A stretch of 64,000 nucleotides of DNA from NCBI RefSeq assembly GCF_032362555.1, contig NC_083515.1:2081001-2145000 (forward strand). The letters run 5' to 3'. Below are positions 346-63,421 of this stretch, one piece after another; position 1 is the first letter of the stretch, and every line of letters starts with the position of its first letter. Position numbers and translations under genes: made by a program. The notes under the pieces were generated by a model that saw nothing but the letters and a program-made list of their open reading frames with translations, made no database searches and had not been told where the DNA came from. This DNA is from Amyelois transitella (Eukaryota; Arthropoda; Insecta; Lepidoptera; Pyralidae).

Positions 346-3300
346 ATGGCAAGAGGCGCACTTTTAAAATCGGCTACGACCTGTAAGTATTAATATTGAA
401 TTTTTTTGTTTGGTTAATTAGTAACAAGCAATTTTATTTAAGTAGTTGTTTTTCAATACCTACATATTATAACGCCTTTATCCCTAATGGGGTAGACAGT
501 TTCAGTGGAGTTGAGTCTCTGATAGTGACGGGCTGCTAGCTCTTTGCATAGAAAGGAATCCAACGCTTACTAGCTTTTCCCTTTATTGACTTTTACAATT
601 GGCATGGGAAGAGCAGCAGCTGGCACACACACTGTGTTTTCCAGTTACCAGAGAAGCATGGAAAGTTGCACTAGATTAATGTACATACACCTACTCCAGT
701 AGTTAACTTATACAACATGCATGAGAAATGGATCAAGTGGTCCTATTCAAAGCATCAGGAACCACATGGCATTACATTAGATGCGGACAGATCTGTCAGC
801 ACAGTACTAACTTGATAAAACATAGGTATCATATTATTAAAATTGTTGATTGGCATCATATAAAATAATGGTATGTTATCTGCGTGTTTGAAACTAACCA
901 TATTATTTTTAAGTAAATACATTGCAACACTAAAGTTTAATATCAGTTATCTATCTATCCCAGTGTACAGTCGCCAAAATTCAAAAGCTGTAGCCTCACA
1001 ATGCCGAGGCTTCACCACCCAGCTTACGGAGCAGCAGCAGAGTGTCCAGGACCGTGCACGCCAGTTCAGCATTGAGCACCTGAAACCCATTGCCTCGAGA
1101 CTGGACACGGAGGGGCGCTTCCCTCATGGGGAGGTATATTTCATGAATTGTTTGGGATTTTAAAATACATATATAACATTAAAATGAATTTGTTCATGGT
1201 GAGGTATATTTCATGAATATTTTGTGATTTTAAAATACAAATTACATTAATATGAATTTGTTCATGGTGTATTTTGAAATACATTATTGATTGTTTCAGA
1301 AATTAAATATCTGAATATTTTTATAGATTCACAGAAGCAGTATTTTAATTATGTAGGTACTTATAAAACAAGGTTGAAACTGCATAACTTAATCAAGAAT
1401 GTCACAGGCTATTCATAAGGGTAACATCACATGTGATGTAATCAAACATAAGCTTTTATCTTGGTGAAGTTAAATAAATCAAGATACTCTCATGTACAAA
1501 TCCTCCACAGATAAAGAAACTAACAAACATGGGCTACATGGGAGCTACAGTCTCTGAAGAATACGGCGGCCTGGGGCTGGACTACCTGTCCCTTGCCATC
1601 ATTGTGGAGGAGCTCTCCCGAGGGTGCGCCAGTACCGGCATGACACTCTCCATTCATAACTTCCTGTATGTGAACCTGGTTAATGAGAAAGGAACTCCGG
1701 AGCAGAAGGAGCAGTTCCTGAGGGATTTCACCAAAGGATCGATTGGGTGCTTCGCCTTGAGTGAGCCTGGTGAGATAGAATGAATCATTAGAACATGAGA
1801 AGATTAACTCTTCTTCCTCTCGGCTGCATCCTCACCACTCTGGAGAGGAGCCCGGGGTATGCCTTTGACAATGGATCCTGGATTGAGTGAGTCAGGTTTT
1901 ACACGAAGCGACTGCCGTCTTTCTTTGCAGGGGAACCAAACCCGTATTGGATCCATGGTTATACATCCAGTTGCCTGAATGTTCTACTTCGAAAATAGTC
2001 ATTGGTACATGGCCGAGGTGGGACTCGAACCTGTGCCTTTTTGCCCCACACGCATTTAAATCTTACCGATTCGACCATCGACGCTCTAACTAAAACATGA
2101 CAGTTAATGCACGGATTCAAACTTGTACTATTCGACTACAGCCCATTCTCCCTAAACAACGGTTTAATGGCGCCAAAAATATGCCACGTCACTGCCAAGT
2201 TTATTTATATCAATATATTTATCTTCGTTTAGAAACAATACATTTTTTTGTGATAAGATAAACGCTACGTGTTACAGGTTACAGGGAGTTTGATAAACTA
2301 TTATGCAATACCAATATTTTTTATATTTATATTTATCTGCCAGTCACGAGTACTATTGTTCTATACATACATATATACATACAAACATACATACATAATC
2401 ACGTCTATATCCCTTTCGGGGTACACAGAGCCAATAGTCTTGAAAAGACTGAGAGGCCACGTTCAGCTATTTGGCTTTAAGATAGAATTGAGATCCAAAT
2501 AGTGACAGGTTGCTAGCCCATACATACATAATAACGTTTATATCCTTTACGGGGTTGACAAAGCCAACAATCTTTGAAAGTCTGAAAGGTCGCGTTCAGC
2601 TGAATGGCTGAGTAATGAGATTCAGATCGTGACAGGTTGCTAACCCATCGTCTAAAAGAAAAATCCCAAGTTTATTAGCCTTATTCTTGATTGGCTTTTA
2701 CATTCCGCACGAATGGACGGCAGCGGCACAAGTTTTTTCTTACTACTAAACCAGCATGGCAGCTTACTCTAGATGAATGTGCTTATTCCCTTAGGCATCT
2801 TTAACGAAATCTATGGCGATGGCAAATTAAACCATAAAGTCTGGTTAATAATATGGGAATTATTTAATGCATTACTAAGATTAATCAACAGCTTATATAC
2901 TAAGGTTAATTGTGAGAAGTGGGCTAACCTCGCTGAGTACCTATGTACTACGTGTTCTACGTGAAACAATATTATTTACGGGTATGTCACGTAGGATGTA
3001 GGTGCTGCAGTGTAGTTTGTTCCGCCGCTTCTTCTATACATGCGCTTTGGAAGCGGTAGTAGTTATAATTAGATTTAAGTGATGTGACGTCAATAAGTGA
3101 TACCGTGTATCCAATTTTGAAAATAAGTCTATTCTATTCTAGGTATTCCTGATACCGCAATAAAATATATGGGAAAAGGAGTGGTCCTATTCTATAGTGA
3201 GGGGATCCCCATGCGATCCTCTTATGTTTTGCTTCTAAATAGCATTAATTTGTTTAACTATTATTTGTTTCATGTATTTGTCACTATTTGAATCTCAATT

Positions 3301-6300: not shown

Positions 6301-8768
6301 TAGTGCGGCCCACAGAGCGGCCACCGCTTGCGACCTAACCCTGGACCACGTCAGGATTCCGAGCAGCTACCTGGTGGGCAAGCCGGGGGACGGCTTCCGA
6401 GTGGCCATGGAGCAACTGGACCAGGCCAGGATCGGCATCGCCGCTCATGCTGTTGGTTAGTATTAAACCATCACCTAAGATCCTACCAACCTTAAGATTA
6501 TCCTCGCCGAATCTGTTAGTGCACCTGTATGTTACGTCCAGTGAAGGTTTCTTTAAGATCCCTGGTGCGCACGCTGGTGGATGGCTTCCGAGTGGCCATG
6601 GAGCAACTGGACCAGGCCAGGATCGGCATCGCGGCTCATGCTGTGGGTAAGTAAGGCTATCACACCATAACCTAAAATCCTACCAACCTTAAGGTTATCC
6701 TCGCCGAATCTGTTAGTGCACCTGTATGTTACATCCAGTGAAGGTTCCTTAAAGATCCCTGGTGGGCAAGCTGGTGGATGGCTTCCGAGTGGCCATGGAG
6801 CAACTGGACCAGGCCAGGATCGGCATCGCGGCTCATGCTGTGGGTTAGTAAGGCTATTACATCACTACTCATGGCTCTATAAACCTTCTGAATCGTAGTA
6901 GGGATGCGCTCTCGTTATCTCTAACAGCGCAACGTTTCTTGACTATCTACAAAATCTCTTTAGTGTCCCATTAATGATGTAAAGGTCTACACCAAAGGCT
7001 GGTGCTGAATCCAACATCCGGCTTGTAGCTTCTTCCTCCTGGCTTTAGGCCCGGTTGCATCCTCACCTCTTTAAAGAAGAGCCCGGGGTATGCCTTTGAC
7101 CATGGATCCTGGATAGGGGGAGTCAGGTTCTTACACGAAGCGACTCCCATCTGACCTCCACAACCTTTGCAGGTAAACCTAACCCGTATTGGATCCATGG
7201 TTACACATCCAGTTGCCTGAATGTGCAGGTTTCCTCACGATGTTTTCCCTCACCGTAAGAGCATCGGTAAGTATTCAAACTAATGTAAGTACATAACTTT
7301 GAAAGTAGTCATTGATACATGGCCGAGGTGGGATTTGAACCTGAATCCTTCTGCTCATCATGCATTTTAACCAGGCACCTTACCGATTCGACGACCGGCT
7401 TGTAGTTAATTTTAAATGTATAATTATTTGTTTGTAGGTATAGCCCAAGCAGCTCTAGACACAGCCATCGACTACGCAAAAGAGCGAGTGGCGTTTGGAA
7501 AGAGTCTTACCAGATTACCTTCAGTCAAGGTATGATCTTAACTGTTTAATGCCTCATTATATGCTATTATTACAGATCGGGGTCTCCTGGTACAGGCTTG
7601 CACGCTTAAAAGGAGACTCCAATCACATCCTTTTTGTATACTTTGCTTGAAGAAATAAACAATTTTGAATTTTTTTTTTTTGAATCAATACTTGTCAATA
7701 AATACATAAATTTTAAGTATTTTTCCCTTAATGGTCAGACGGGAGTCGCTTCTCGTAAATACCTGACTCACCCAATCCATGATCCCCGAACTCCTCTCCA
7801 GAGTGGCGAGGATACAATCGAGACTATAGCCAGGAGGAAGATCATTTTTTTTAAATAAAATCACGCCTCTTTCAGTAGTGGGGGTTGGTAGAAACTAGGC
7901 CTTTCCACTTGCCACGATCTGAGGTACTCTCGACTTGATCTTTAACCCAAAACAAAACGTCCCCATTTTTTCAAGGCGGCTAACATTCTGGAATTGATAT
8001 TCTGAAAAAATACATTGATTTTTAATTAATTTCCAGGACCGTCTCACAGAAATGAGCGTGCTAATAGAAACAGCTCGCCTCCTTACTTATCGTGCCGCCA
8101 CCGCTGTTAACACTAAGAATAGTGCTATGGCGAAGTATGTGGCGGGACGCAACGCTGTGGCGGTGTCAGATCATTGCGTGCAAATCCTAGGCGGCAGGGG
8201 ACTGTCTACTAAATATGATGCCGAGAGACATTATAGGTGACTATAAGTTGTATATAAACTATGATAATAATGTCAAATAGTAGAAAATATAGTGCTATGG
8301 CGAAGTATGTAGCAGGACGCTACGCTGCGGCGGTGTACGATTCGAAATTTCGTGCAAATTCTAGGTGACAGGGGAATGTCTACTAAAAACGACGCCGAGA
8401 GATATTATAGGTGATAATAATTTAATAAGATGAGCTATAAACTGTGTTAAAAAAATAGTTAATAATACGCCACGGCGGTGTCCGGTTTTACAATTGCGTG
8501 AAAATTCTAGGTGACAGGGGACTGTCGAGAAATATCTCTTATATCTCTTACATTGTATTGAGACCATTTTTACTTACGAAGCGGAAAACATGATATTTTG
8601 TTTATTTAGATAAGGCAACATAGTTAAAGTATTACGCATTTATGAACGATTTAAACATTATTTTATTGTCGTAGGGACGCTCGTGGTACGCAGATCTACG
8701 GCGGAGTGACGGACATTCAGAAACGGCTGGTCGGACATTTCCTACTCAAAGAACACGACGCGCTTTGA
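346..8768 (+). CDS. ACADS: Short-chain acyl-CoA dehydrogenase-like protein, mitochondrial (9 exons)
   Basis: Exons: 346-382, 964-1133, 1511-1769, 3660-3821, 4264-4330, 6316-6455, 7438-7529, 8037-8236, 8675-8768. They join in frame to 406 aa, close to the roughly 410 aa of the family. The FAD flavoprotein family removes alpha/beta hydrogens from short acyl-CoAs in the mitochondrial matrix and passes electrons to ETF. The N-terminus (MARGALLKSATTLYSRQ) is basic, Ser/Thr-rich and lacks acidic residues, as expected for a mitochondrial presequence. Family motifs are clear: EELSRGCASTGMTLSIHN, GCFALSEPGAGSDVAS (FAD/substrate loop), LNGRKSWVTS, then QILGGRG and AERHYRDAR near the C-terminus. Oddity: the catalytic position in IYEGTSEIQ of ordinary ACADS reads IYGGVTDIQ, so the active-site Glu is Gly. 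The alternative Glu position used by isovaleryl-CoA dehydrogenase (LDLER) is Ala here (LDQAR). The family is certain; the activity is doubtful. ACADSB is less likely. Confidence 0.9.
470..665 (-). repeat. Degenerate copy of the GTGTGGTTCCCGGCACC SINE family
   Basis: In intron 1 of the ACAD-like gene. It carries the recognisable minus-strand order of this family: 'cgcctttatccc..ggggtagacag', 'gtgacgggctgctagc', 'cccttta..gacttttac', 'catgggaagag'. It is strongly diverged and so probably old. Confidence 0.6.
1125..1266 (+). repeat. 70-bp tandem duplication spanning the exon 2 splice donor of the ACAD-like gene
   Basis: The exon end and donor (catggggag|gtatatttcatgaat) recur 70 bp downstream as catggtgag|gtatatttcatgaat, followed by the same 'tttgtgattttaaaatacaa' type sequence. 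Both units carry a usable GT donor. The first is the one that keeps phase with exon 3. Confidence 0.8.
1801..2092 (-). repeat. tRNA-derived SINE (family B), minus strand
   Basis: In intron 3 of the ACAD-like gene. Read on the minus strand, the head has a B-box-like 'ggttcgagtcccacc' and an A-box-like 'tggtcgaatcggtaag', as in tRNA-derived SINEs. The body contains 'ccatggatccaat' and 'ggcatacccc'. Related copies are at about 7022-7402, 24767-24966, 58785-58945 and 62276-62632. Confidence 0.7.
2355..2765 (-). repeat. Two adjacent minus-strand SINE A copies
   Basis: Copy one (about 2364-2520) and copy two (about 2521-2720) each begin with tacatacata and run through 'ggggta.acagagccaa.agtctt' and 'gtgacaggttgctagccca'. 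Copy one stops at that block, so it is 5' truncated in SINE orientation. Copy two continues to the 'tcccaagttta.tagcc' block and is diverged. Confidence 0.75.
2995..3575. repeat. Pair of opposed LINE 3'-end-like repeats (family D)
   Basis: A plus copy (about 2998-3142) reads 'gcagtgtagtttgttccgcc..cttcttc..ggaagcgg..gtgacgtcaataagtg'. A minus copy (about 3385-3575) holds the complementary 'ttgacgtcaaataaataact..cgcttccaaggcgtcag'. Further copies lie at about 35563-35730 (+), 44685-44825 (-) and 53510-53652 (+). The 'tttgaatttgaa' ends suggest the 3' end of a non-LTR retrotransposon. The family name is not known to me. Confidence 0.55.
3957..4200 (+). repeat. Dispersed lepidopteran repeat with 'cgcgacttcgtccgcg' motif
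   Basis: Starts 'ctagctgtgcccgcgacttc' and continues 'gggcatcattaaagccctca'. The same sequence recurs at 61374-61500. Other members or relatives are at about 25205-25420, 30908-31130, 56601-56815, 61527-61716 and 63836-64000 (with 'actactgaaccgatta' and 'tttataatattagtaggat'). This type is widespread in Lepidoptera. I believe it belongs with Lep1/Helitron-like non-autonomous elements, but that assignment is from memory. Confidence 0.5.
5085..5370 (-). mobile_element. RTE-type LINE 3' fragment, inverted relative to the next one
   Basis: The minus strand encodes the same C-terminal reverse-transcriptase tail as 5465-6133 (GHVERMNENRLT, then [20 protein letters not shown]) and ends in a tacatacata tail on the plus strand. 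A frameshift or indel breaks the middle. Together with 5465-6160 it forms a long inverted pair inside intron 5 of the ACAD-like gene. Confidence 0.8.
5465..6160 (+). mobile_element. 5'-truncated RTE-type LINE: C-terminal reverse-transcriptase fragment and (TATG)n tail
   Basis: An open frame (5465-6133, 222 aa) matches the C-terminal region of RTE-like endonuclease/reverse transcriptases: [68 protein letters not shown]. The catalytic RT motifs and the endonuclease are missing, so this is a dead 5' truncation. After the stop come 'gagtttatg' and a tatgtatgtatg tail. The frame is still intact, which suggests a recent insertion in intron 5 of the ACAD-like gene. Confidence 0.85.
6560..6850 (+). 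repeat. Two extra copies of the 3' half of ACAD exon 6 with donor
   Basis: The exon 6 segment from 'ggcttccgagtggccatgg' to the donor (start at 6392) recurs at 6583 and 6780, with spacing of 191 and 197 bp. The copies encode the same residues (GFRVAMEQLDQARIGIAAHAVG) and each keeps a GT donor (gtgggtaag, gtgggttag). The intron tail ('cctaccaacctta..gttatcctcgccgaatctg') is copied too. I see no good acceptor before either copy, so they look like pseudo-exons. Confidence 0.85.
7022..7402 (-). repeat. tRNA-derived SINE (family B), near full length
   Basis: In intron 6 of the ACAD-like gene. It runs from 'cttcctcctggctttaggc' through 'gcccggggtatgcctttgac', 'aacccgtattggatccatgg' and 'catggccgaggtgggatttg', to the tRNA-like head ending 'taccgattcgacgacc'. 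Read on the minus strand it has A- and B-box-like promoter sequences. A truncated relative follows at about 7731-7845. Confidence 0.75.
8283..8540 (+). repeat. Two decayed copies of the ACAD exon 8 3' half
   Basis: 8285-8412 copies exon 8 from 'agtgctatggcgaagtatgt' to 'gagagatattatag|gtgat', including the donor. 8463-8540 copies 'ggcggtgtc..ttgcgtg.aaattctagg.gacaggggactgtc'. Both carry many substitutions and no intact frame, so they are older than the exon 6 copies. Confidence 0.8.
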
Positions 8769-8970
8769 CGAGCGATGTAATTAATGAGCGATGTGATGCG
8801 TAGCGCGCAAGTAACTTCTAGAACGCATAATAACGAGACTTTTTTAAGAGTAATTAAGTATACAAGATTTTATAAGAAATGGGTATTTAGAGACTTGAGG
8901 AGGACAGTTACTTTTTCTTAAATTGAAAAATAATAGCGGTTTTATCCGTTATGCACTGAGGGGTGCAATG

Positions 8971-12418: not shown

Positions 12419-12492
12419 CTACCTTGATTACGGACAAGGCGTAGCTGTATCGGCGGCATTTATGTAGAAAAACAACAGAAAATCAAGCGAAA

Positions 12493-22549: not shown

Positions 22550-28701
<6,152 letters not shown>

Positions 28702-33600: not shown

Positions 33601-36600
33601 AGACACATAAAAAAGTTCTACTGACAGAGAATGCCTTGTGGCATTAAGTCAGTCTTAATGCCACAAGGCATATATGTATATGTATATACATATATTCACG
33701 TCTATATCCCATGCGGGGTAGACAGAGCCAACAGGCAAGACTGATTGGCCACGTTCAGCTGTTTGGCTTAATGGTAGAATCAAGTCCACCTGTTGTACAT
33801 TTAATGTGCATAAATTTTAAATAAAAAACAAAAAGTACAAGCCTGTAATTTACTTTGGGGCTCTATATCTCATCATCATCCTGACGTTGAAGCGAAGGAA
33901 GTATGCAGAGATCGTGGCAAGTGGAAAGAGGTAGTCTCTGCCTACCCCTCCGGGAAAGAGGCGTGATTTTATGTATGTATGTATGTATCCTGACGTTAGT
34001 CCAGGTTACATCCTCACCTCTTTAGAAAAAAGCCCGGGGCGCGCCTGTGACCTCAATCATGTACCACTACAGGAGTACGTTTGATGAAAAAGTGTGACTT
34101 ATGTGGGTAATAAGTTCGTCACGAAGTAACTCCCGTCTGACATCCACAACCTTTATACTGATGTACGGCCTCTGTGGCGCAGCGGTAGCGGAAGTAGCCC
34201 TGGGAACTCCGGTGCGTCTGTGGAGGAGGTTCCGGGTTCGAATTCCGGCCAGGGAATGATGAGAAACGAACTTTCTTTGATTGGCCTGGGTCTGGGATAT
34301 TTATCTATATAAGTATTTATTGCAAAATTTAGTATCGTTGAGTTAGTATATCTTAACACAAGTCTTGAACTCCTATTTCTTTATTTATTAAATAATCTGA
34401 CCTAAATTGGATTAAGGTTTCAGTAAGCAAGCAGTTTTCCCAACCATTGTGACTCACATCTTTTGCATCATTCCATTTCATTCTCAAAACTTATTGATTG
34501 AGAGATGTCGTCTTGTTTTCATTAAACATTTAGCTTATGATTTGGTTGATCATGACCTAATAGATTTACTTAAACAATCCAATATAAATCCATTGTTCAC
34601 GAGAAAACAATGAGTATAGTAATCGCCTTTTGCTCGACAGCTAAAGAAGAGTAGTATAGTATTTTTACACATTAAACTTTATGAGAATGAAATTCGTTAA
34701 ACAATTCAAAGAAAGATGATGGGTAAGATGTTGTCTCTGCCTACCCCTCCGGGAAAGAGGCTTCATTTTATGTTAAATGATTACAAAGCTTTTATGGCTT
34801 TTACGCTATTTGTCTAACTCCGCCAAATTAAAAAATAAAATTTGTTACAAAATAAGTTTTTCATTGCAAAAACGTCTTTATTCCCAGCGGGTTGATTAGA
34901 GTCAGTAGTCTCGAAAAGGTCGCGTTCATGATAGAAAAACAGTAGGCAAACAATAGGTAATTATTTTACTAGCAGACTTAATTACTTTAGTCGCCTTTTA
35001 CGATATCCATGAGAAAGACATAGACTCACACACAGCATTCTACATAGTATAAGTTGACAAAAGAAATTGACACTGACGGAACGTGACGAAACAATATTTC
35101 ATATAATAATAAAAAAAATTACATACATGCCGGGAACCACATCATTCTTAAGTGCAGATAATTACTCAAATTTTTATTTCAAAGTGTCACATTACCTTAG
35201 TAAAATAAGAGTCCGCCAGATAAGCGATCTTCTGCGGCGCCCCAGGACACTTAATCGGGGTGTCCGGGTATGTGAAGATGGCGTCTCCTCCTTTGAACTT
35301 GTTCAGGTCGGAAGCGGTCTTCTCCGCGTACTGCCACGAGTATATGGTGGACACGCTGCTGTCGGGGTCCACTAGGGCTTCGCATAGACCTGGAACCTGA
35401 AAATATTCAAAAAACAGTTTTTCAACCGCACCTTCGCAATCGTGGACTCTTATCCAAAAGACTCTACATAATATACCTATATTTTGTATAACATATGGTA
35501 AACACATATTCACTTGTTTTTATTTGTAACATATTGTATTTTTTTAAATATGAAGAAAATGCTGCAGTGCAGTTTGTTACCGCTTCTTCTGCCTTGGAAG
35601 CGGCAGTAAACATAGTTTTAAGTAATTTATTTGACGTCAACCAATATTGTTAAACCATACGTTTTGATAATTATTAAGCGATATGAAGTATCCTATAATA
35701 ATGAATAAAAAATTTGAATTTGAAATAAAAAATAAACTAAATGAAATAAACTAAATTTTAAAATAGGCGCACCTACTGGCTTCTCTTAAAAGGCAGAACC
35801 AACCTGGTAAAGTAAACAGAAAGGCGGATTTGGTGACCCACTCTGCCTTCTCTGGCACTATCAAGTACCCACTCGGCCTTCTCTGGCACTATCAAGTTCT
35901 TACTCGGCCTTGTCTGGCACTATCAAGTACCCACTCGGCCTTCTCTGGCACTATCAAGTACCCACTGGTACTAACCTTGTCGTAATCATTCTCCAAACCC
36001 ACCGCCACCACCAAGTACTCGTACTGTATTACGTGCCCCTCCACAGTAGTGACGCAATTCTCCGCAGCGTTTATACACTCAGCTTTATCCCTTATCCATT
36101 TGGCCTTTTCTGGGAGACAGAGCTGCTCGGGACGGCAGGTAGTCGACAATTTCGTCACCCCAGCTCCAACTAAGGTCCACAATGGTTGGTAGTAGTGATC
36201 CTGAAATACATAAATAGAAATACATATACATACATAAAATCACGCCTTTTTCCCGGAGGGGTAGGCAGAGACTACATATTTCCCCTTGCCACGATCTCTG
36301 CATACTTCCTTCGCTTCATCCGCATAATTAAAAAACGGTCTCTGCCCCGTAATAAGGCAGTTTTATCGCGCAAATCGCCGTCTCCCCTTTTTATTATGAC
36401 GTGAAACGGGATAACAACAGTTTTGTTTTCGGGGTTCATTAAGAGAATCGCTGCCTGTTATTTTTTTACACAGTAATAGCAAACTTCCTTATTTAACAGA
36501 TCAACGTGACAAAAACGTGTTAGATGACTTGGAGTCAGAGTGCAAATATCATTAGTATTTATTAGCGAAATCCATTATGCATGCTTTATGTATAAAGTGC

Positions 36601-43300: not shown

Positions 43301-46300
43301 GGCGACCTGCTGGAGACGAGCGCGGAGCCCCGCCGGCCGCCGCGCCGCGCCGCGCCGCCCGTGCCGCTCGTGCGGTGTCGCGTCTACAACGCTGAGAGAC
43401 CGGTAACTTATTATGATACTACATGTTGCCAGCGACTTCGTCTGTATTAATATCTATGAATTAAAATTAATTGTGTTATACCAATTTCTAACATATACAG
43501 GGTGACTTTTAATTCAACTGCATAAGATTAACTGTTAAGTGTACTCATCTAAAGGATATTTATAAACGTTAAAAGAAAAATATCGGTTCATATTTCAGAA
43601 AGTACGAAAGAAAAAATAAAAATATCAAAATCCACTATCCAAAATATGTCATATCACCCCGGCCGGCGGAAAAGCGACGCGTAAGATTCAGAGGTCAACG
43701 ACACAATTCATTCAGCTGAGCGATCTCGACAACTCTGTACTTTACTTGATCTTGATACTAGAAAAATAATTTAATTTTCAGACATTTATTTACATGTTTA
43801 GTTTTAATTTCTTTTTGTAGTATTGGTCTTTAATAAAGAGTGTGACGTAGTTTTTGAGGGTTTTTTAAATGTGAAAATGATGACGTTTAATTTAAATAAA
43901 AATAGGCTCAAACGACTCAGAAGCATGGGTATAGTCTATGTTTAAAAGGGTGCAGTTGTTTTAAATGTCACCCTGTATAACTGCAAAGTTTCATGAGAAT
44001 CTGTTCAGGTCTTTTTTTTAGCATGAAATAGTGAGAAGCACATACATTCTTATAAAATTTAGCTATTTTTATAATATAAGAAAATTAACAGAGAAAAATG
44101 ATGAATCCACTAACTCCACCTACAAAAGCGCTTAAATTTAAGAAGAAGAATATTAGAAGGATTTATTGAAGAGTAAGCTTTGTATCGTGCTACTAATGTT
44201 AAATCCGGCCTGATGTTTAAACACAATTATTTTAGGGAAATTCTTTTTTCTCATCAATAATTTTCCAGTTAAACAGGACATTAAGACTACCCTAAAAAGC
44301 CAGCCAACAAGAATATAAACAGAAACCTCAAGACAAATGATATGTATCCCTCTAGGCCCCCTTCGACGTCCGCCTATACGTGTCGGCATTGATCAGCATG
44401 GACGTACACGCTCACACGTCCCGCGGCGAGGTGATGGGGCTGCTGGGCGGCACGTGGAGCCCCGCGCTGCTGGCGGAGCGCCCCGCCGTGTGCGGGCTCG
44501 CCTACCGCCCGGCCGGGGCGGCGGCCGGCTCCACGCACTGCGACATGGACCCTGGTAACGCACTCCTTGCTGTAAATTACAATTACGTCTTTCTAGAGAC
44601 GAGCCCGGATTGTATGTATCCAGCTTTTGATGCCACAGTCAGTGATGTGCGGTTATGTCTTTTTGTTTAAGTCATACATAAATTCAATTACAAAATTTTT
44701 ATGAATTGATAGTTCATATCACTTAATAATTGTCTTATCTAAAAGATTTACAACATTGGTTGTAGTCAAATAAATTACTTAAAATTTTGAGTTTATTGCC
44801 GCTTCTAAAGCGTCAGTGCAGAAGACAATTCAAACGTTTGTATCCCTTACGCAATAGACACAGAACGGGAACAGTCTCCTAATAACTGAAAAGCCACGTC
44901 CAGCTGAATGGTTTAATGACGGTATTGGAATTTTGAAAGGAATGTAATCTATATTGCAGTGTCCCAGTCATCGGCGGCGGAGTCCCTGCGAGCCCAGGGC
45001 CTGTCGGTGGTGGCGTGGCACCACTCGCACCCCGCCTTCCCGCCCGCGCCCTCCGCGCAGGACCTGCGCTCGCAGCGCGCGCTGCAGGCGCTGGGGCCCC
45101 GCCTGCTGGCGCTCATCACGGCGCAGCACTGGCCCGCGGGCCGCGCCGCCTCGCAGTACAGGTGAGCTCACACAGCGCTGCAGGCCTGGGGCCCCGCCTG
45201 CTGGCGCTCATCACGGCGCAGCACTGGCCCGCGGGCCGCGCCGCCTCGCAGTACAGGTGAGCTCACACAGCGCTGCAGGCCTGGGGCCCCGCCTGCTGGC
45301 GCTCATCACGGCGCAGCACTGGCCCGCGGGCCGCGCCGCCTCGCAGTACAGGTGAGCTCACACAGCGCTGCAGGCCTGGGGCCCCGCCTGCTGGCGCTCA
45401 TCACGGCGCAGCACTGGCCCGCGGGCCGCGCCGCCTCGCAGTACAGGTGAGCTCACACAGCGCTGCAGGCCTGGGGCCCCGCCTGCTGGCGCTCATCACG
45501 GCGCAGCACTGGCCCGCGGGCCGCGCCGCCTCGCAGTACAGGTGAGCTCACACAGCGCTGCAGGCCTGGGGCCCCGCCTGCTGGCGCTCATCACGGCGCA
45601 GCACTGGCCCGCGGGCCGCGCCGCCTCGCAGTACAGGTGAGCTCACACAGCGCTGCAGGCCTGGGGCCCCGCCTGCTGGCGCTCATCACGGCGCAGCACT
45701 GGCCCGCGGGCCGCGCCGCCTCGCAGTACAGGTGAGCTCACACAGCGCTGCAGGCCCGGACTTATCTCAGTCAGACATCATTTCTCAGACATCCACGTGA
45801 CTCAGTAAGATATCACGTGTCTTAGTCAGACATCACATTCAAGTTTGTAGCTTCGATGGTTTAAGCTGAGCATTGATGAGCCAGTAACCTTTATCCTTTT
45901 ACACATCACAGTCTAGGGATTAGGCAAATGTTCATAAACTATATTAGTTATGAACTTATCTTTCAGTATAGTTAGTAAATACCCCGTATGTGAATAATTG
46001 ATTGGTTTTGTGGCGACATCTATTCGCCACAAGTCTCAAAAATAAAATCACGCGACGCTAATGTCAAAAACAGCGGCAAGTCTAAATCGCGCAAGCAAAG
46101 ATTTCACGGATTGAAGCATACAACCTCCGACACAACATCGTCGGAGCCACAGGCATAACAACTAGCCTGGCGGAAGATTTCCCCTTGGTGGCGGTCGAGC
46201 CGAACTATCGCTCCCGTTACAGTTTCACTCGAGTATTCAGACGGTGTTCCGTACAAAAAGTTAAGATAGCCATGATGGTCGCCAATCTTCGTCGAGAAAC

Positions 46301-51643: not shown

Positions 51644-54600
51644 TCACTCGATACTCTTGACTCGCGCCATGACCTTCCCCTCGAACATGGGCAGGGGGTC
51701 GTTGTCGTTGCTGACTTCCTCTTGTATCACCGTGTCCAGGTCGGCGCAGTTTGTTTTGAAGAAGTATCTGTGTAGTGGTAAATAAGTCGTGTTTAATTTT
51801 GGCTGTTGAAAAATGTTTTAATATTATCATGCAAGGGGCAGAAAATGTCTGCCTATAATTTAGCGCCATGACCAGGGTGTCTAGATCGTGTCTATTTTCA
51901 GGTAGGATTTCCATCATATAAGCGAAGAAGCATCATAGCATCATAGAAGCGAAGCCCCACACGAAAGCTTTACTATTTTGTTTTTTAATTTTGCTTTCAA
52001 TAGTCTGTGTTCCTTCTTTATGTACGCCATAGCAACGGTTGCCATGGTTTGTTATTTAGGAAAAAAATACAGATATTATTTTTATTTTCATCATATTTTT
52101 ATTTTATTACATAGGGATAGGCTTACAAACATGGGATTCTTTTTTAGGCGATGGGCTAGCGACCTGTCACTATTTGAATCTCAATTCTATCATTAAGCCA
52201 AATAGCTGAACGTGGCCATTCAGTCTTTTCAAGACTGTTGGCTCTGTCTACCCCGCAAGGGATATAGACGTGACCATATGTATGTATGTATATAGTACTT
52301 AAAATTTGATTATTTCTCTCCTCTTTTCTCCTTCCGTATTAAATAACTAAGTTAGCGACTACACTCCCTCCACCCCCCACCTGTAGTTCCCCTTCCTGGG
52401 CAGGTACTCCTTGAGCAGCTTGAGCGTGAGCGGCGCCGCGGGCACCTTGAACCGGTACGGCACCTGCTCGTCCAGGAACGACACCACCAGCACCGTGTGC
52501 TCGCCCCCCCCGCCCCCACCACCGCCTCCGCCGCTCGTGCTGCTCGACTTGCTGCCGCCGCCCCTGGGAACAACACACCGTTGGATTAAAGGTTTACAAT
52601 AGACCTGGCGAGCTACTAAATATAGCAGCAAAGAGTATGTACATATTATCACGTCTGTATCCCTTGAAAGAATATCTAAAATAATTATATATAAGCGTAT
52701 CTCTTAGTCGCCTTTTGCAACATCCATGGGAAAGAGATGGAGTGGTGTTATTCTTTTTTTTTATATTTTATATACAGTAAAACTTTGAAGAATTTCTATC
52801 ATTGATAGATTGACGTAGATCGATTAGTTAGATGTATACAATTGAACGAACTATTATTTGCGGTTTTGGGCCACCTCGACTATATCATTCTTGCACGCAG
52901 TTCTAACGAGACTCAACTGTAGATCTATTTTTGACTAGATGAGTGTGGTAAAAAATTAGGGCGCATCTGAGGGTCAAAATGACTACATACTTATATGACG
53001 TAGGTATTAATTTCCTTTTTTTGACATAAATTGAAATATAATGTGAAAGCCGATCTTAAATGCAGAGTTAGAAGCCTTGATTACCGACTGCATCGAACAA
53101 TCGACTAATTTGATTACTTTAAATAGAAATCGCCCATCGCTACTACTATATAACGTAGGAATTTATTTCCGTTCCCTCTTCTTCGAAGACCGAAATGTAA
53201 TATGAAAACCGACCCAAAATGAATAGAGGTTCATTTAGTTATCTGAAATAAATTTTACGGAAGAACCGATTAATTTTGAACCGTTTCAAAGTAGCGATGG
53301 GCGATTATTGCTAAATATACAGTCGACCGCATCGAACCTAATTTCTGATCAATTGTATAAGGTTTTATAATAAATTACCAAATAGTGTTCTTAAAATGAA
53401 TGATAGAAAATTCAAAAAATACATTAAAGTAGTTTTTTAATGTAGACAATGTGCATTCGTCCATGATTTAGATTTAAGAGATCTATATTTGTATATTGAC
53501 GTCCGATGAAAATGCTGCAGTGTAGTTTGTTCCGCCGCTTCTTCTACACATGCGCTTTGGAAGCGGTAGTAGTTATAATTAGATTTAAGTGATGTGACGT
53601 CAATAAGTGATACCATGTATCCAATTTTGAAAATAAATCTATTCTATTCTAACCACAATGGGAACGATAATTCGAGCTCGATCGCCATCAAAGGGAAAAT
53701 CTACCGCCAGACTATGTTTGATGCCTGGGGAACTGCACGACAGACGATGTTGTGTCGGAGTTTGTATATATGCTCCAATCCGTGAAATCTTTTGCTCGCG
53801 TAATTTAGACCCTTCGCTGTTAATGGCCGATAGCGCCGTTTGACTGACTGTTGTGGCTAGTGACGTATAGAGGTCGCCACAGAACAATCGAGTGATTCGA
53901 TTACTGTATCTCTCAAAGTGTCGTGTGGTTCCCGGCACCAATAAAAAAAAAGAATAGGACCGCTCCATCTCGTTCCCATTGATTTCGTAAAAGGCGTTAG
54001 GGATATGCTTATTAACTTGGGATTCTTCTTTTAGGCGATGGGCTAGCAACCTGTCACTATTTGAATCTTAATTCTCTATCATTAAGCCGAACAGCTGAAC
54101 GTGGCCTATCAGTCTTTTCAAGACTGTAGTCTCTGTCTACCCCGTAAGGGATAAAGACGTGATCATATGTATGTATGCATTAAGCCGAACAGCTGAACGC
54201 GGCCTATCAGTCTATTCAAGACTGTTGGCTCTGTCTTCCCCGTAAAGGATAAAGACGTGATCATATGTATGTATGTATGCATTTAGTCAAACAGCTGAAC
54301 GTGGGCTATCAGTATTTCCCAAATTGTAGTCTCTGTCTACCCCGTAAGTGATAAAGACGTGATCATATGTACGTATGCATTAAGCCGAACAGCTGAACGC
54401 GGCCTATCAGTCTTTTCAAGACTGTAGTCTCTGTCTACCCCGTAAGGGATAAAGAGCTGAACGCGGCCCCTATCAGTCTATCCCAGCTCGCAGTCCCCGT
54501 CCACCCCGGCGGCCCACCTGGCGCGGCGCTCGCGGCGGCGGTGCTCGTCGCGCTCGGGCTCCCCGGCCGCGATCCACAGCAGGATGCGGGGCTCCGCGTC

Positions 54601-57600: not shown

Positions 57601-60600
57601 GACAGGTTGCTGGTCCATCGCCTAAAAAAAAGAATCCCGAATTTATAAGCCTACACCTTAGTCGCCTATTACGACATCCATGAGCGAGAGAGAATGGAGT
57701 GGTCCTATTATTTTTTCTAATGGTGCCGGGAACCACACGGCACACACGTTTGATGATATGTAAAAAAAAATTGATTAAATTAGACTTTTTTATCTTATGA
57801 AGGTAGAATAACTTACCATAGCTGTATCTGGTTCCATGTTGATGATAGCGTTCCTGTCGAGACCGTGGGGCCGGGAGCGGTGGCGATCGCGGGTATCGCG
57901 CAAACCACGCATTGACATGCCGTCCCTGTCGCACACATGATAAATCAATATGGAAGAGAGAGAGAGGGCAGATGTTTAAGATTGTGTTATTAAAAATCGT
58001 TTGCATTATGTACCCCTAATAGCGAAAGTTATTTCATTCTTGATAGGCAGGAATACCAGTTCGTGAAATACTAGAGGTAAGTAGTATTTTTACTTTTTAG
58101 TGTCTACTAGTACAATATGATAACTTTTTATTTTTTGTTTTTACTTTTTCATTTCTTTTATGTAATATCTCTGCGAGCTTCAATCATAAATGTATTTTTA
58201 TTACATCTAAAGAACCTATCAAACAGACACATATAACTTTAAAGTATTACATTATTTAATAAACAATTCATTTTTAAGTCAAATTTATTTAATCAAGTGA
58301 TCTTATGTTTATAACATCACCAGCAATGTATGTATTAAGATGTTACACATTAATTACATAAATTACGTCAATTTATGCAATGTAAATGGTGGATTAAATG
58401 ACTGTTATAGCACATTCTTGGGAATTACTGACAGTGCAAGTTAGTTAAGGGTTCCTATGACAGGGACAAACAGATGCAAGTATATTTTTGTAATGCAGTC
58501 AATGGGAGACTAAAGGTGCGCTTACCCAGATGCAAATTTCTACGTATTCGCATCTGTTAAAACGCACCTTTATGATAGAAACGATATTTTGTACACTAAT
58601 TGCTAACATACATTTATAAAAACTACTTAATAGACTAATACATAAATAGTATAACTAAAAGGTTTGAAAAGTAAATAAAAATTGCAACTTATAAGAAAAC
58701 TGGTATAATTAAAAAAAATATACTTTTTTTTTCTATTAGAAACACATTACTTACTTGTAATTAATTGCAGAACATTATCCTGTTGCCTGATCATGCAAGT
58801 TTCTCCCGATGTTTTCCCACACCATAAGCAACGTAGGTACCGGTTAGCACACAAACTAATGTCCTTACATAACTCAGAAAAGAGTCATTGGTACTTTGCC
58901 GAGGTAGGTTTCGGACCTGTGCCTTCATGCGCATCACACAGTCGAATACATAAATACATAAAACACGCCTGTTACCGCTTGAAGTGGTAGGCAGAAAAAT
59001 CTTTCCACTTGCCACGATCCCTTCATTCTTTCACTTCATTTAATTGAAGTCCCACCAACGACGTCTCGACTCTTACATACATACATACATAAAATGACGC
59101 CTCTTTTCCGGAGGGGTAGGCAGAGACTACCTCTTTCCACTTGCCACGATCTCTGCATATTTCCTTTGCTTCATCCACATTCATAACTCTCTTCATGCAA
59201 GCTCGGCGGTTTCGGGTACTTTTGACCTGACCCTTAACCTCTCGACTCTTTCATGGTAAAAAATATGTCCATTACTTACACGCTGCTGCCAGACAGTGAA
59301 ACCGCATCGCTGTCGGTCCTTCCGCTGCTGAAACTGGCGCGGGACGAGTCCTGCCTCGAGGTGGGGCAGTAGCCGGCGTAAGTCACGTGGGCGCTGTACA
59401 CTGACCGCTTGCGGTGACTGCTGCCACCCGATTGTGGTAGTGAGCGGGCGGTGGATTGTGCGGGTCGGTGGGGGAGTCGAGTTTGGACAATTTTGGTGTT
59501 ACAAGGAAAAATGAATGTAAAAGTTGATAGCAATTTGGAAGGAATAAAATGAAGTTGCAACAAGGGAATCCGAATACATCGTAATTCGATAAAATATTCG
59601 TAATTTCGTGACAAAAATGAGATTAAAGAAAATAAAATTTCAATTTGAAAATAGAATCAAGAGTTTATGGAAACAGATGTCAGGTTTAGTCAAAAAAAAA
59701 AACATATCGATGTAAAAATGCATTTTGGTATGGGTGAAATTAATTTGCAACAAAATATGGAATAGATAAATTAATTTTTTTTTAATAAAGGGCATGTGTA
59801 AGTTTAAACATTAGGATAGGGTGGAGATAAGGATGTCAGGTGAGAAACAAGGGTGCATGTGCAAGGATAAATAATAGAGTAGGGTACGGGTGTATGGATT
59901 ATTCAGGTGGCGACGCATCGTGATAACGGGCGGCGTGCGGCGCAAACATGCAGGCGCGGAACAAAACATGGGGGGCAAACAAACTTTATATCAGAAAGCT
60001 GGCAGGGAACAAAAATAAAAAAAAATAATAATATTTAAAACAGCTGTCATCTGGCAGGGAAACAAAATTAAAATTAGAACAGCTGGCGGGGGAACAAAAT
60101 TAAAAATTAAATCAGCTGATAAGTAAGCTTGGGAGAGGGGGTAAATTAAAATGAGTGGATAAACCTGGGCATTCTGATGTGTTGAATATTTTTTTTTTCA
60201 AATGTTGGTATTACATAAAATGTAAAAGGTTGTCAGACTTTTTTCCAGCTTGAATTTATTACTTGAAGTTTATGAATATTTATGTATAAACGATTTATAT
60301 GATTACAACAAAAGGTTTATTGACTATCATTTTGATCAATATGCCGTGAGTTTTGTTCAATGAATGCTCAGGTTTATCAAAGTATTTTTTATTACAATAT
60401 CGCATGCAATGCTAGGGGTCACACTTTATGCAAATTTTGATGACTTAAAGCATTCTAAAAATAATTTCTATATGTACATGTATATTTGAAACAAAATGTC
60501 TAAAAATAAGCTAACATAATAACACTACTCTTGACGTTTAAAACTAAACTACTGTATTAAAGAAAAAAACCCAGACTCGATCCATTAAGCAATCTAGTGT

Positions 60601-63421
60601 GTCATTAGAATTAAGAATTTCGTAAGATTTCTATGAATCTATCTATTTATAAGGTACCTTTATTCTATATATCAGGTCTAGAGTTGAAGTCATTTAGAAA
60701 AAATCGTAAAATAAGATTTTACGAAATTTCTTGGACTACAGAATTGCTTCATGAATTGGCTCTGGGTCGGTTGAAATGCGATGCGACGAACAATACTGTA
60801 GCTTTTGACACTTCGTTTAGAAATAAGAGTACATAGCAATAATATTGTTATTTTAAATTCTTTACCTATGTACTACAACTTCCATATACAACAGAAAAAT
60901 AAATACTGACTGATGTATAAACGCTGAACCCAACCCGATGGGTCTTAAGTTTAAAAATGTAGCATAAAGATGCCAATCTTCTCTTATGCGCCCTCCCTCA
61001 TACTTCAAAAGAAAGACCTTGTCTTTTAAAGTTTTCTTTTTAATTAATTAAAAAAAAAGCGTAACTTTCCATGCTCCTATCTCACCAAAACCAATCGTCA
61101 CCAACTTAAATCTAATCACAACTGCGACCGCTTCCAAAGCGCGCGCGCACAACACAATGTACAGGTCAGTACGTACGGCGCCACATCGGAGCGCAGCCGG
61201 CGGCCCTGCGTGGCCAGCAGCGCGCCGTGCGTGAGCCGCGCCGGCAGCGCGCCCGCCGCCAGCTCCTGCTCCTCGTGCAGCGTGGCCAGCCCCGCCAGCG
61301 GCTGCGCGGGCGGCGACATCTGTCGGCGTTATATTATAGTTATTAACGTTATCATGAAATATATATACAACTAGAGGCCGCCCGCGACTTCGTCCGCGTG
61401 GAAAAGTTAGTTTGGGCATCATTGAAGCCCTCAAGGATGAATAATTTTGGCCGTTTTTTTTTTCACCTTTTCCATTATAGCTTCGCTCCTTAAAGTTACA
61501 GATAGATTATCATTATCAATCAATATATATCCTACTAATATTATAAATGCGAAAGTTTGTGTGTATGTCAGTATGGATGTTTGTTACTCTTTCACGCAAA
61601 AACTACTGAACCGATTACGATGAAATTTGGTATGTAGGTAGCTGAAGACCCAGAATAACATAAAGGCTTTTTATCTCAGAGTCCCCGCGGGAATGATTCC
61701 ACGCGGCCTCTAGTATATAATAAATCAGGGGAAAAAAATAACAAATAACTATGTTGTAAAACACAATCTAACGCCTAAATAATAAGAGATTAAGGTAATT
61801 CAATAAAAGCCGACGATTCATGGAGGGTATGTGGGTATTCATGTAGTGGGTATAGGGGTTCACGGAAAGGGTGTAGGTTCACGGAGGGGGTGTGGGGGTT
61901 CATGTAGTTGTTATGGGGGTACACGGAGAGGGTGTGGGGGTTCACGGAGGGAGTGTGAGGGTTCATGTAGTGTGTATGGGGGTACACGGAGGGGGTGTGG
62001 GGGTTCCCAGAGGGAGTGTGGGGGTTCACCTCTCTGTACTGCGGCGGCGAGTCCGGCGAGGAGAGCGGCTGCGTGGCCGCGCTCACGTACGACACATACG
62101 CCTCCGACCGCAGGAACGCCTGGTACGTCGACTCCGTTATCGAGCGCGTCACCTGGACAAACAAAGAGAGACATAAAGCGTGCGAATACAGGTATTATTT
62201 GAGAGAGTCAGAAAAATATATGGTGTGTTAAGTCGATTCAGAAAATGGACTTGTTCACCGGTAAAAAAATCGAATCTTCGTCTTCTGCCTCCTGGCTTTA
62301 GTTCCGGTTGCATCCTCACTTCTCTGGAGAGGAGCCCAGGGTATGCCTTTGACCACGGACCCTGAATTGGGTGAGTCAAATTTTTACACGAAGCGATTCA
62401 TCTGAACTCCGCAAATTTTGCAGGTAAACCTAACCCGTATTGAATCGATCATGGTTAAACCACAACCAGTTGCCTGAATCTCACCGTAAGAGCATCGGTT
62501 AGCATTCAAACTAATGTACGTAACTTTCGAATATAGTCATTAGTACATGGCCGAGTTGAGATTCGAACCTGCGCCTTTCTGCACATCAAGCATACTAAGC
62601 GTTCATCTTACTGATTCGACCACCGACGCCCTAAATAAATTATTTTTATCTTTAAATAAACTCTCATAATTTTTCCTTTGCGCGAATTTATAATATTCCG
62701 TGTGGTTCCCGGCACCAATACAAAAAAGAATAGGACCACTCCATCGCTTTCCCATGGATGTCGTTAATGGCGACTAAGGGATAGGCTTACAAACTTGGGC
62801 TTCTTTTTTAGGCGTTGGATTAGCAACCTGTCACTATTTGAATCTCAATTCTATCATTAAGCCAAATAGCTGAACGTGGCCATTCAGTCTTTTCAAGACT
62901 ATTGGCTCTGTCTACCCCGCAAGGGATATAGACGTGATCATATGTGTGTATGTGAATTTATAAGTATAATACAGTACAGTAGTACTAGTTAGTGGGTTTT
63001 AATTTAAGTTCCTGGTTGACCGAGCTTTGCTCGGTCTACTGATATATCTTCTTAAAACGCGGTTTTTAAAATGTTTATATATCGGATGGCGCTGATATAG
63101 TTTCTTAAAACGCGGTTTTTAAAATGTTTATATATCTTGGGAACCGAGCTTTTCTCGAACCTAGGACCTTATAAATCGATTCCTTGAACCGAAAAGCCCC
63201 TAATCTTTAACTTTCATGAAAATCGTTGGAGCCGTTTCCGAGATCCTGATTATATACATATATATACAAGAATTGCTCGTTTAAATATATTAGATTTCTC
63301 CTGTACCTCCTGTTCCATGTTATCGAAGATCGTCCGCTCGATGTCAACTCCGTCCTTGAGACTCTGCTTGACATGCTGCTTCAGCTCTTCAGGCATCGCT
63401 AGCTGAGACTTGCGGAGAAAT
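51644..63421 (-). CDS. Axn: Axin, C-terminal part: RGS end to DIX domain (11 exons, 5' end outside window)
   Basis: Exons in coding order: 63421-63307, 62152-62030, 61319-61177, 59420-59280, 57925-57817, 57453-57310, 56554-56446, 56074-55891, 54676-54518, 52563-52381, 51767-51644. Together 510 aa in frame. Axin is the scaffold of the beta-catenin destruction complex in Wnt signalling. Seen in order: the last RGS helices ([27 protein letters not shown]); [13 protein letters not shown]; a GSK3-binding-like helix ([19 protein letters not shown]); the beta-catenin-binding helix ([12 protein letters not shown]); a Pro/Arg/Ala-rich linker; then a Gly run directly before the DIX domain ([43 protein letters not shown]-stop). 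DIX polymerises Axin and binds Dishevelled. The N-terminal half of RGS and the tankyrase-binding region lie past the right edge. The exon 59420 acceptor was chosen by phase. Confidence 0.92.
52113..52291 (+). repeat. 5'-truncated SINE A in Axin intron
   Basis: Begins 'atagggataggcttacaaac' and runs to 'gggatatagacgtgaccata' plus a tgtatgtatgta tail, ending about 90 bp from the Axin exon that begins the DIX domain. A minus fragment follows at about 52640-52750. Confidence 0.8.
53510..53910. repeat. Family D (+) followed by family E (-) dispersed repeats
   Basis: 53510-53652 copies the 3000-3142 repeat closely ('tgatgtgacgtcaataagtg'). It joins directly to a minus copy of the 46008-46250 repeat (about 53640-53905). 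The tight junction suggests one inserted into the other or that they form one composite element. In the Axin intron before the DIX exon. Confidence 0.6.
53919..54510 (+). repeat. SINE A copy followed by a tandem array of its 3' end, reaching the Axin exon 9 donor
   Basis: A full SINE (53919-54178) is followed by three or four more copies of only its last about 100 bp ('agctgaacg.ggcctatcag' to 'gacgtgatcatatgtatgta') at about 54180, 54285 and 54380. A final diverged unit (about 54454-54510, 'agctgaacgcggcccctatc..cagtccccgtccacccc') stops about 7 bp short of the Axin donor boundary at 54518. Confidence 0.8.
54720..54980 (+). repeat. SINE A copy just upstream (coding sense) of Axin exon 9
   Basis: Full copy starting 44 bp from the exon boundary at 54676, separated by a 20-plus A/T run that on the minus strand forms the acceptor's pyrimidine tract. 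Exon 9 is therefore sandwiched between two SINE A insertions. Confidence 0.85.
57481..57742 (-). repeat. SINE A copy in Axin intron
   Basis: (catacata)n tail adjoining the exon 57453 acceptor region, then 'ggggtagacagagccaacag', ending with the head 'ggtgccgggaaccacacggc'. It starts 28 bp upstream (coding sense) of the exon. Confidence 0.85.
58511..58572. repeat. Imperfect hairpin 'taaaggtgcg..cgcaccttta'
   Basis: Outer arms taaaggtgcg / cgcaccttta are perfect. Inner arms agatgc / gcatct are also perfect, with small bulges between. About 62 bp in all, in an Axin intron. It could be a tiny foldback element or a small-RNA-like hairpin. Confidence 0.7.
61822..62029 (-). repeat. 21-bp minisatellite starting at the Axin splice donor
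   Basis: From the donor of exon 62152-62030 the coding strand reads about ten units of gtgaacccccacactccctc type, nearly all exactly 21 bp (one is 19 bp). The first unit's GT is the splice donor itself. The array stays open in the exon's frame as heptads of the form N-P-H-T-P-S-V until a stop at 61790. Several units repeat the 'tcc|gtgaac' donor-like junction. Confidence 0.9.
62276..62632 (-). repeat. tRNA-derived SINE (family B)
   Basis: Near full length and diverged: 'gcctcctggctttagttcc', 'gagcccagggtatgcctttg', 'catggccgagttgagattcg', ending 'ctgattcgaccaccgacgcc' (tRNA-like head on the minus strand). Confidence 0.75.
62698..62953 (+). repeat. SINE A copy in Axin intron
   Basis: Full copy from ccgtgtggttcccggcacca to 'gggatatagacgtgatcata' with a short tgtgtgtatgtg tail. 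Another diverged copy lies at about 63498-63758. Confidence 0.85.

What the first reader, a model, noticed from the sequence alone, without database searches (positions are those of the whole stretch)
1125..62029. Tandem duplications repeatedly sit on or beside 5' splice sites in four of the window's genes
Seven arrays or duplications contain or abut a splice donor: ACAD exon 2 (70 bp, 1125-1266), exon 6 (two extra 3' halves, 6560-6850) and exon 8 (two decayed 3' halves, 8283-8540); SQOR2 exon 3 (31 bp x4, ending 8 bp from the donor); MYSM1 exon 8 (95 bp x6); Axin exon 9 (SINE-tail array ending about 7 bp from the donor); Axin exon 62152-62030 (21 bp x10, starting at the donor). Ages differ, from identical copies to decayed ones, so this is not one event. 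I know of no described mechanism that would target donors. Options are R-loops or replication slippage at GC-rich exon ends, or retained selection for donor redundancy.
Basis: partly seen in the sequence, partly recalled or inferred. Interest (0 to 1): 0.75.

Follow-up and report, generated by a model that had tools for sequence, protein, structure and literature searches.

The report
Moth exon ends repeat into introns
In this moth DNA the tail ends of several exons, with their 5' splice sites, have been copied in tandem into the following intron more often than chance predicts for this window, and predicted proteins of some other moths and butterflies show similar copies; the closest described case is 'exon stuttering' on tiny bird chromosomes.

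Summary
The window is Amyelois transitella (Pyralidae). Six gene models give 47 donors. A blind self-comparison finds 11 close direct-repeat arrays: 7 span or start within 10 bp of a donor, 0 lie at an acceptor (free placement expects 2.5 each, donor p=0.0017; with coding sequence kept intact 0.90 expected, 0 of 4000 runs reached 7). Four of the seven copy the exon's 3' end with its donor; a fifth (SQORb) is built from a piece of its exon. Annotated ACAD and MYSM1 proteins use the first donor, so the extra copies would be spliced out.

Predicted proteins of Colias, Phthorimaea, Tuta and Ostrinia repeat exon parts that end at about an exon's 3' end, in the three gene families searched; one case sits at an exon's 5' end.

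This matches 'exon stuttering', described in 2026 on bird dot chromosomes; Lepidoptera and the donor bias would be new. Selection for spare donors is not supported. Best reading: recurrent microhomology-mediated duplication at exon ends, with splicing sparing the donor side. No genome-wide test could be run, and the window was chosen for its oddity.

The parts
1124..1269 (+). ACAD (short-chain acyl-CoA dehydrogenase) exon 2 (964-1133): 70-bp duplication holding the last 10 nt of the exon, the donor GAG|GTATAT and 60 nt of intron, x2 plus an 8-nt third start
   Evidence: short repeat TCATGG(G/T)G at both ends of the duplicated segment and at the junction
6370..6864 (+). ACAD exon 6 (6316-6455): the 3' 84-86 nt of the exon plus donor plus about 110 nt of intron, two extra copies; donors read GTTAGT (used), GTAAGT, GTTAGT
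8119..8535 (+). ACAD exon 8 (8037-8236): 3' 118 nt plus donor copied at 8289-8423 (84%) and a decayed remnant at 8466-8535
35836..35966 (-). SQORb (sulfide:quinone oxidoreductase, second copy) intron 3: 31 bp x 4.2 starting about 10 nt after the exon-3 donor (exon 35976-36200); unit matches exon-3 codons around PEKAKWIRD
   Evidence: 21 of 28 nt, shuffled-unit p=0.002, best of 53 exons
45079..45759 (+). MYSM1-like exon 8 (44960-45161): 95-bp unit = last 83 nt of exon (82 in the copies) with donor CAG|GTGAGC and 13 nt of intron, one exonic and six intronic copies, nearly identical
   Evidence: 11-bp repeat GCGCTGCAGGC at both outer ends
54080..54508 (-). Axin exon 9 of the window (54518-54676): array of SINE-derived units of about 98-100 bp starting about 10 nt after the donor
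   Evidence: SINE match
61817..62029 (-). Axin exon 2 of the window (62030-62152): 21-bp minisatellite (about 10 copies) starting at the donor GAG|GTGAAC; several units keep GTGAAC or GTGTAC
59974..60106 (-). Non-donor array in an Axin intron, the only one of the 7 arrays classed as non-TE that lies away from a donor (694 nt from the nearest)
2386..2648 (+). Non-donor array, head-to-tail SINE pieces in ACAD intron 3

Best explanation
The arrays are a lepidopteran form of 'exon stuttering': recurrent local tandem duplications that start at the 3' end of an exon and run into the following intron. Shown here: in four of seven arrays the copied unit contains the exon's last 10 to 118 nt, the donor and the start of the intron; the coding exon stays intact; the annotated ACAD and MYSM1 proteins use the first donor; the copies have different degrees of decay; partial exon copies ending at about an exon's 3' end occur in predicted proteins of four other lepidopterans. 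Inferred: slippage or microhomology-mediated repair makes the duplications at exon ends, favoured where the exon end is GC-rich. Splicing then acts as a filter: the first donor transcribed is the one used, so extra donors downstream go out with the intron. A duplicated acceptor would offer the wrong (earlier) acceptor first, and a duplication inside an exon would break the protein.
For: 7 of 11 arrays at donors, 0 of 11 at acceptors; filter-aware null expects 0.90 at donors and 0.95 at acceptors, 0 of 4000 reached 7 donors. Bird-style screen of exons against introns of the same gene: 3 of 47 introns positive at the published 42.1-bit threshold, all on the donor side, sources ending 0, 0 and 2 nt from the exon border. 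ACAD model identical to P0060, 406 residues; SQORb query 100% identical over 441 residues to P0126; MYSM1 across the exon 8-9 junction identical to P0001. Short direct repeats at the ends of the duplicated segment in ACAD exon 2 (8 nt, imperfect) and MYSM1 exon 8 (11 nt). SQORb unit resembles its own exon 3 (p=0.002). Other Lepidoptera, mapped on Amyelois exons: Colias ACAD exon 6 (aa 258-279; exon ends 278.3), Phthorimaea ACAD exon 4 x3 (aa 172-213; exon ends 209.3), Tuta MYSM1 exon 7 (aa 439-480; exon ends 480.3), Ostrinia SQOR exon 3 x4 (aa 86-141; exon ends 141.0). GC of marked exon ends 65% against 51%, p=0.015.
Against: Three of seven arrays (Axin twice, SQORb) begin 0-10 nt inside the intron, and in the two Axin arrays I saw no exon sequence; one of those is SINE-derived. 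A filter alone would leave many intron-interior arrays, yet only 1 of the 7 arrays classed as non-TE is there, so a hotspot has to be assumed and its cause is not shown. Folding corrected for composition does not differ at these donors (z -0.31 against 0.14, p=0.20), nor do G2-quadruplex motifs (p=0.09). One case anchored near an exon's 5' end exists (Ostrinia SQOR exon 6), and Colias P0062 also holds a copy of nearly the whole exon 6. The other species are known here only from predicted proteins, with exon borders taken from Amyelois. One window, chosen for its oddity.
Confidence: 0.52

Rival explanations
1. Donor-specific mutational hotspot: something tied to transcription or splicing at the 5' splice site (polymerase pausing, R-loop, U1 engagement) breaks or stalls the germline DNA there and makes short tandem duplications.
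For: The seven arrays start from 118 nt before to about 10 nt after a donor; none lies at an acceptor, although exon starts average 56% G+C against 51% for the unmarked exon ends. SINE and minisatellite arrays without visible exon sequence also start at donors (Axin).
Against: No transcription, R-loop or replication data; GC skew does not differ at marked donors (p=0.63); marked donors are not stronger. A splicing filter gives the donor/acceptor asymmetry without a hotspot at the donor itself. One case near an exon's 5' end in Ostrinia.
Confidence: 0.2
2. Chance clustering in a window picked for it.
For: The window was flagged for this feature. Only 11 arrays; three lie in one gene; looser thresholds weaken the signal to p=0.036 within 10 bp and p=0.38 within 100 bp.
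Against: Filter-aware P below 1 in 4000. Partial exon copies ending at about an exon's 3' end in the same three gene families of four other species, which were not picked for it.
Confidence: 0.13
3. Uniform random tandem duplication with splicing tolerance as the only filter, no hotspot of any kind.
For: Duplications downstream of a used donor are removed with the intron; this explains donors over coding interiors and, with first-site use, over acceptors.
Against: Intron interiors should be at least as tolerant and make up most of 41,969 intronic bp, but hold 1 of the 7 arrays classed as non-TE; a null that rejects coding-breaking placements expects 0.55 of these at donors against 6 seen, 0 of 4000.
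Confidence: 0.08
4. Selection keeps extra donors as back-ups or decoys.
For: Copies in ACAD exon 6, ACAD exon 2 and MYSM1 keep GT donors, one stronger-looking (GTAAGT); the two Axin donors score low.
Against: The 7 marked donors as a group are not weaker (p=0.43). Use of a downstream donor without a new acceptor meets stops after 1 to 79 codons. Copies of ACAD exon 8 have decayed. Unrelated genes.
Confidence: 0.03
5. Assembly error.
For: The near-identical 95-bp MYSM1 array could be mis-sized.
Against: The other arrays are diverged (TRF matches 71-91%, ACAD exon 8 copy 84%) and so are unlikely to be assembler echoes; predictions from other species show similar copies.
Confidence: 0.04

Closest known systems
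Sequence stuttering / exon stuttering on avian dot chromosomes (Hron et al. 2026, PMC12954441; abstract, sections 7, 9 and 16 and passages read)
   Same: Imperfect direct tandem copies, tens to hundreds of bp, of a lateral part of a coding exon with its splice site, within the adjacent intron; exon itself intact; source within 1 base of the exon border in over 90% of their cases; proposed association with GC-rich coding sequence; mechanism unknown.
   Different: There 190 of 236 positive introns are on GC-rich bird dot chromosomes (10 on other micro-, 36 on macrochromosomes), and outside birds the authors name only gerbil GC-rich genes. Here an insect with 32-47% GC per 4 kb. They name donor or acceptor once and the main text reports no bias between them; here 7 donor to 0 acceptor in the window. 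Length variation between individuals is shown there and untested here.
Intron gain by tandem duplication of AGGT-containing sequence (PMC4974935, search listing with start of abstract only; dual-specific splice sites PMC10809524, passages read)
   Same: Local tandem duplication that copies splice-site sequence.
   Different: There a new intron arises. Here the introns with arrays are ordinary ones (intron 3 sits after codon 141 in both SQORa and SQORb) and the annotated proteins show no new intron.
Tandem exon duplication with mutually exclusive exons (recalled)
   Same: Exon sequence repeated in the following intron.
   Different: Whole exons with both splice sites are copied there. In the window only 3' parts are copied and the annotated proteins found here use none of them.

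Membership tests
[quoted passage not shown]
   3 of 47 introns: MYSM1 e8, ACAD e6, ACAD e8. The other four arrays gave no exon hit at that threshold: ACAD e2 shares only 10 exon nt, SQORb is decayed, the two Axin arrays show no exon sequence.
Exon stuttering (PMC12954441) | Source sequence at the exon border | tested here: met
   Sources end 0, 0 and 2 nt from the exon's last base; the ACAD e6 alignment stops 2 nt short.
Exon stuttering (PMC12954441) | Coding exon left intact | tested here: met
   Spliced model identical to the annotated protein for ACAD and SQORb, and across the MYSM1 exon 8-9 junction. Axin not compared with a database protein.
Exon stuttering (PMC12954441) | Intron length varies widely between individuals | not testable with these tools
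   One assembly, no reads.
Exon stuttering (PMC12954441) | GC-rich setting (dot chromosomes) | tested here: inconclusive
   Window GC 32-47% per 4 kb, but marked exon ends 65% against 51%.
Intron gain by tandem duplication | A new intron whose two ends come from the two copies | tested here: not met
   Intron 3 position shared by the SQORa and SQORb paralogs; the annotated ACAD, SQORb and MYSM1 proteins need no new intron. Axin not tested.
Mutually exclusive exon duplication | Complete exon copies with own acceptor and donor, used alternatively | tested here: not met
   In the window only 3' exon parts are copied. Alternative use of the copies was not tested by RNA. In Colias P0062 one further copy covers nearly the whole exon 6.

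The most novel reading that the evidence does not exclude
In Lepidoptera the 5' splice site, or the exon end that carries it, is a germline hotspot for short tandem duplication, so that transcription or splicing itself marks the places where new repeats are born. This would make exon stuttering a general eukaryotic process with a direction (donor side), not a peculiarity of bird microchromosomes.
Probability: 0.25. Interest if true: 0.85.

Novelty: new variant of a known kind. Interest (0 to 1): 0.62.

Why it matters
If the donor excess holds genome-wide, a repeat-birth process has a fixed address in genes. Its cause (transcription, splicing, GC, replication) could then be tested in insects that can be bred and sequenced in numbers. 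It could also account for some wrong gene predictions in moths and butterflies (proteins with repeated exon tails), and it would carry exon stuttering from birds to insects.

Tried and rejected
Selection for donor redundancy: set aside on donor strength and read-through stops. Secondary structure and G-quadruplexes as the cause: folding corrected for composition not different (p=0.20), G2-quadruplex motifs p=0.09, GC skew p=0.63; raw folding energy differs (p=0.013) but follows GC. Alternative in-frame exon from the ACAD exon-6 copies: by reading, the copies could be joined in frame to exon 5 through an AG before them, but the annotated protein does not use them; dropped. Exon-to-intron Smith-Waterman scan: z above 4 at 3 of 47 donors (z 33-65) and 1 of 47 acceptors (MYSM1 exon 10, 16 nt, z 4.5, taken as chance); empirical p of 0.02 or less at 4 donors and 3 acceptors; so the exon-copy signal by that measure rests on three donors. 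Wider offsets (up to 600 bp) give 13 arrays, 9 at donors and 3 at acceptors; the two added donor arrays and the three acceptor overlaps are pairs of SINE copies whose joined span runs over an exon. Self-BLAST of proteins printed nothing and was replaced by a diagonal scan. Genome-wide test: not possible. Paper searches: looked for donor-linked tandem repeats, exon copies or stuttering; I saw listings only (20 of 44, 15 of 97) and noticed no such report outside PMC12954441. One search (splice-site choice) returned no paper. Most subscription journals are not held.

Rows set aside: whole-gene or multi-exon repeats (P0127, P0128, P0129) and one 8-aa simple repeat (P0058) were not counted as exon-end copies; P0062 and P0064 are counted as one gene. 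The SQOR search listed 120 of 3917 hits, and only those were scanned. In one search four arrays were classed as TE-derived: three match the SINE; 58946-59158 was classed by reading, from similar motifs elsewhere in the window.

Full report
WHAT THE WINDOW IS. Predicted proteins place it in Amyelois transitella, the navel orangeworm (common name recalled; Lepidoptera, Pyralidae). I built spliced models of six genes: ACAD, an LRR membrane protein, SQORa, SQORb, a MYSM1-like gene and Axin. They have no internal stop, 47 introns and 47 donors. The ACAD model equals the NCBI-named protein P0060 over 406 residues, and SQORb is 100% identical to P0126 over 441 (my model itself stops two residues short). 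MYSM1 equals P0001 except for ten residues and one neighbour, which look like another donor choice in exon 2. The donors that carry arrays are therefore the annotated ones in ACAD, SQORb and MYSM1. Axin was not compared with a database protein.

THE ARRAYS. A blind self-comparison of the window, direct repeats with offset 10-600 bp, shows strong hits above a background at scores of about 34 or less. With offset up to 200 and score 40 or more there are 11 arrays. Seven span a donor or begin within 10 bp of one; none lies within 50 bp of an acceptor. I set the score cut after seeing the list. At cuts of 30 and 27 the donor count within 10 bp stays at 7, of 14 and 19 arrays (p=0.008 and 0.036). 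When distance is relaxed to 100 bp the p-values are 0.05, 0.11 and 0.38. With offsets up to 600 there are 13 arrays, 9 at donors and 3 at acceptors; the two added donor arrays and all three acceptor overlaps come from pairs of SINE copies whose joined span runs over an exon.

CHANCE. Long arrays hit donors by luck, so free placement expects 2.5 at donors (p=0.0017). A fairer null rejects placements that would break coding sequence; it expects 0.90 at donors and 0.95 at acceptors, and none of 4000 runs reached 7 donors. For the 7 arrays classed as not transposon-derived, 0.55 are expected and 6 seen, again 0 of 4000. Seven to none between donors and acceptors gives 0.016 in a two-sided sign test (my arithmetic). 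The window was flagged for this very feature, so this is not a genome-wide estimate.

ANATOMY. In ACAD exons 2, 6 and 8 and MYSM1 exon 8 the unit holds the end of the exon (10, about 85, 118 and 83 nt), the donor and a piece of intron. In SQORb the 31-bp unit sits just inside the intron but resembles codons around PEKAKWIRD of the preceding exon (21 of 28 nt in the alignment, p=0.002, best of 53 exons). In the two Axin arrays I saw no exon sequence; one is SINE-derived, the other a 21-bp minisatellite that begins at the donor. Short repeats at the outer ends of the duplicated segment, TCATGG(G/T)G in ACAD exon 2 and GCGCTGCAGGC in MYSM1 exon 8, point to slippage or microhomology-mediated repair as the first step (in MYSM1 an end piece left by later expansion would look the same). 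Exon-derived copies range from nearly identical (MYSM1) to 84% (ACAD exon 8), so the events probably differ in age.

CONSEQUENCE. The annotated ACAD and MYSM1 proteins use the first donor. Reading past the used donor meets a stop after 1 to 79 codons at the seven sites. The extra copies are therefore best seen as intronic passengers. Marked donors are not weaker as a group than the 40 others (p=0.43), which speaks against selection for spare donors.

OTHER SPECIES. I scanned the 245 proteins listed by the three homology searches (59 MYSM1, 66 ACAD, 120 of 3917 SQOR hits) for internal direct repeats and mapped the hits on Amyelois exons. Four lepidopteran genes repeat a segment that ends at about an exon's 3' end: Colias eurytheme ACAD exon 6 (also copied in Amyelois), Phthorimaea operculella ACAD exon 4 (three copies, with about 12 residues not from the exon; the alignment runs 4 residues past the exon end), Tuta absoluta MYSM1 exon 7 (a prediction that stops just after the second copy), and an Ostrinia furnacalis SQOR exon 3 (four copies). 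The longer Colias protein also has a copy of nearly the whole exon 6. One case lies near an exon's 5' end (Ostrinia SQOR exon 6), and one spans several exons (Operophtera SQOR). They come from three further families (Pieridae; Gelechiidae, with Tuta placed there from memory; Crambidae).

WHAT IS KNOWN. Hron et al. 2026 (PMC12954441; abstract, sections 7, 9, 16 and passages read) describe sequence stuttering on chicken dot chromosomes: tandem copies of exon edges with donor or acceptor in the adjacent intron, in 236 introns, 190 of them on dot chromosomes (3.4% of dot introns). Outside birds they name only GC-rich gerbil genes, and they speculate about replication stress or meiotic conversion. 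A screen with their settings on my six models gives 3 of 47 introns (6.4%), all on the donor side. The phenomenon is thus described; in the listings that I saw I noticed no report of it in insects or of a donor bias.

MECHANISM. Best supported: duplications arise at exon ends by slippage or microhomology, more often where the exon end is GC-rich (65% against 51%, p=0.015), and splicing decides which survive. If splice sites are used in the order they are transcribed (recalled principle, not tested), a copied donor downstream is harmless, whereas a copied acceptor upstream would be used too early. This explains donor over acceptor. It does not by itself explain why intron interiors, which should tolerate such copies, hold only 1 of the 7 arrays classed as non-TE; some hotspot near exon ends is needed, and its cause is open. 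A hotspot made by transcription or splicing at the donor itself is the boldest reading left standing.

VERDICT. A real, non-random feature of this window; a new variant of a known kind, in a new group of animals, with a directional bias that needs a genome-wide test.

Noticed in passing
40744-40842: MYSM1-like exon 2 seems to have two donors 30 nt apart: my model and annotated isoform X2 (P0001) differ by ten residues (WYDIQNKNLL).
   Followed up: partly
61817-62029 (minus strand): The 21-bp Axin array continues the exon's reading frame for 79 codons (VNPHTPS-like heptads) before a stop; intron retention would add a repeat tail. By eye the heptad register breaks in the last third.
   Followed up: partly
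22550-28701 and 30665-39971: Two SQOR genes in tandem with eight exons each; predictions with two SQOR-like halves, perhaps fused neighbours, appear in Danaus (P0127) and Spodoptera (P0128).
   Followed up: partly
whole window: A SINE-like element (GGGGTAGACAGAGCCAACAGTCTTGAAAAGACTGA) gives 28 hits in the window, and its pieces form tandem arrays at 2386-2648, 38530-38632 and 54080-54508.
   Followed up: partly
about 14240-15250: The long first intron of the LRR gene holds what looks by eye like a decayed mobile-element gene on the minus strand.
   Followed up: no
protein P0129 (Operophtera brumata SQOR): Internal repeats at offsets 175 and 159 residues, 98-99% identical, spanning several exons; possibly an assembly duplicate.
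   Followed up: no
protein P0058 (Leptidea sinapis MYSM1-like): An 8-residue coding minisatellite (MGPPLRSI) in the protein.
   Followed up: no
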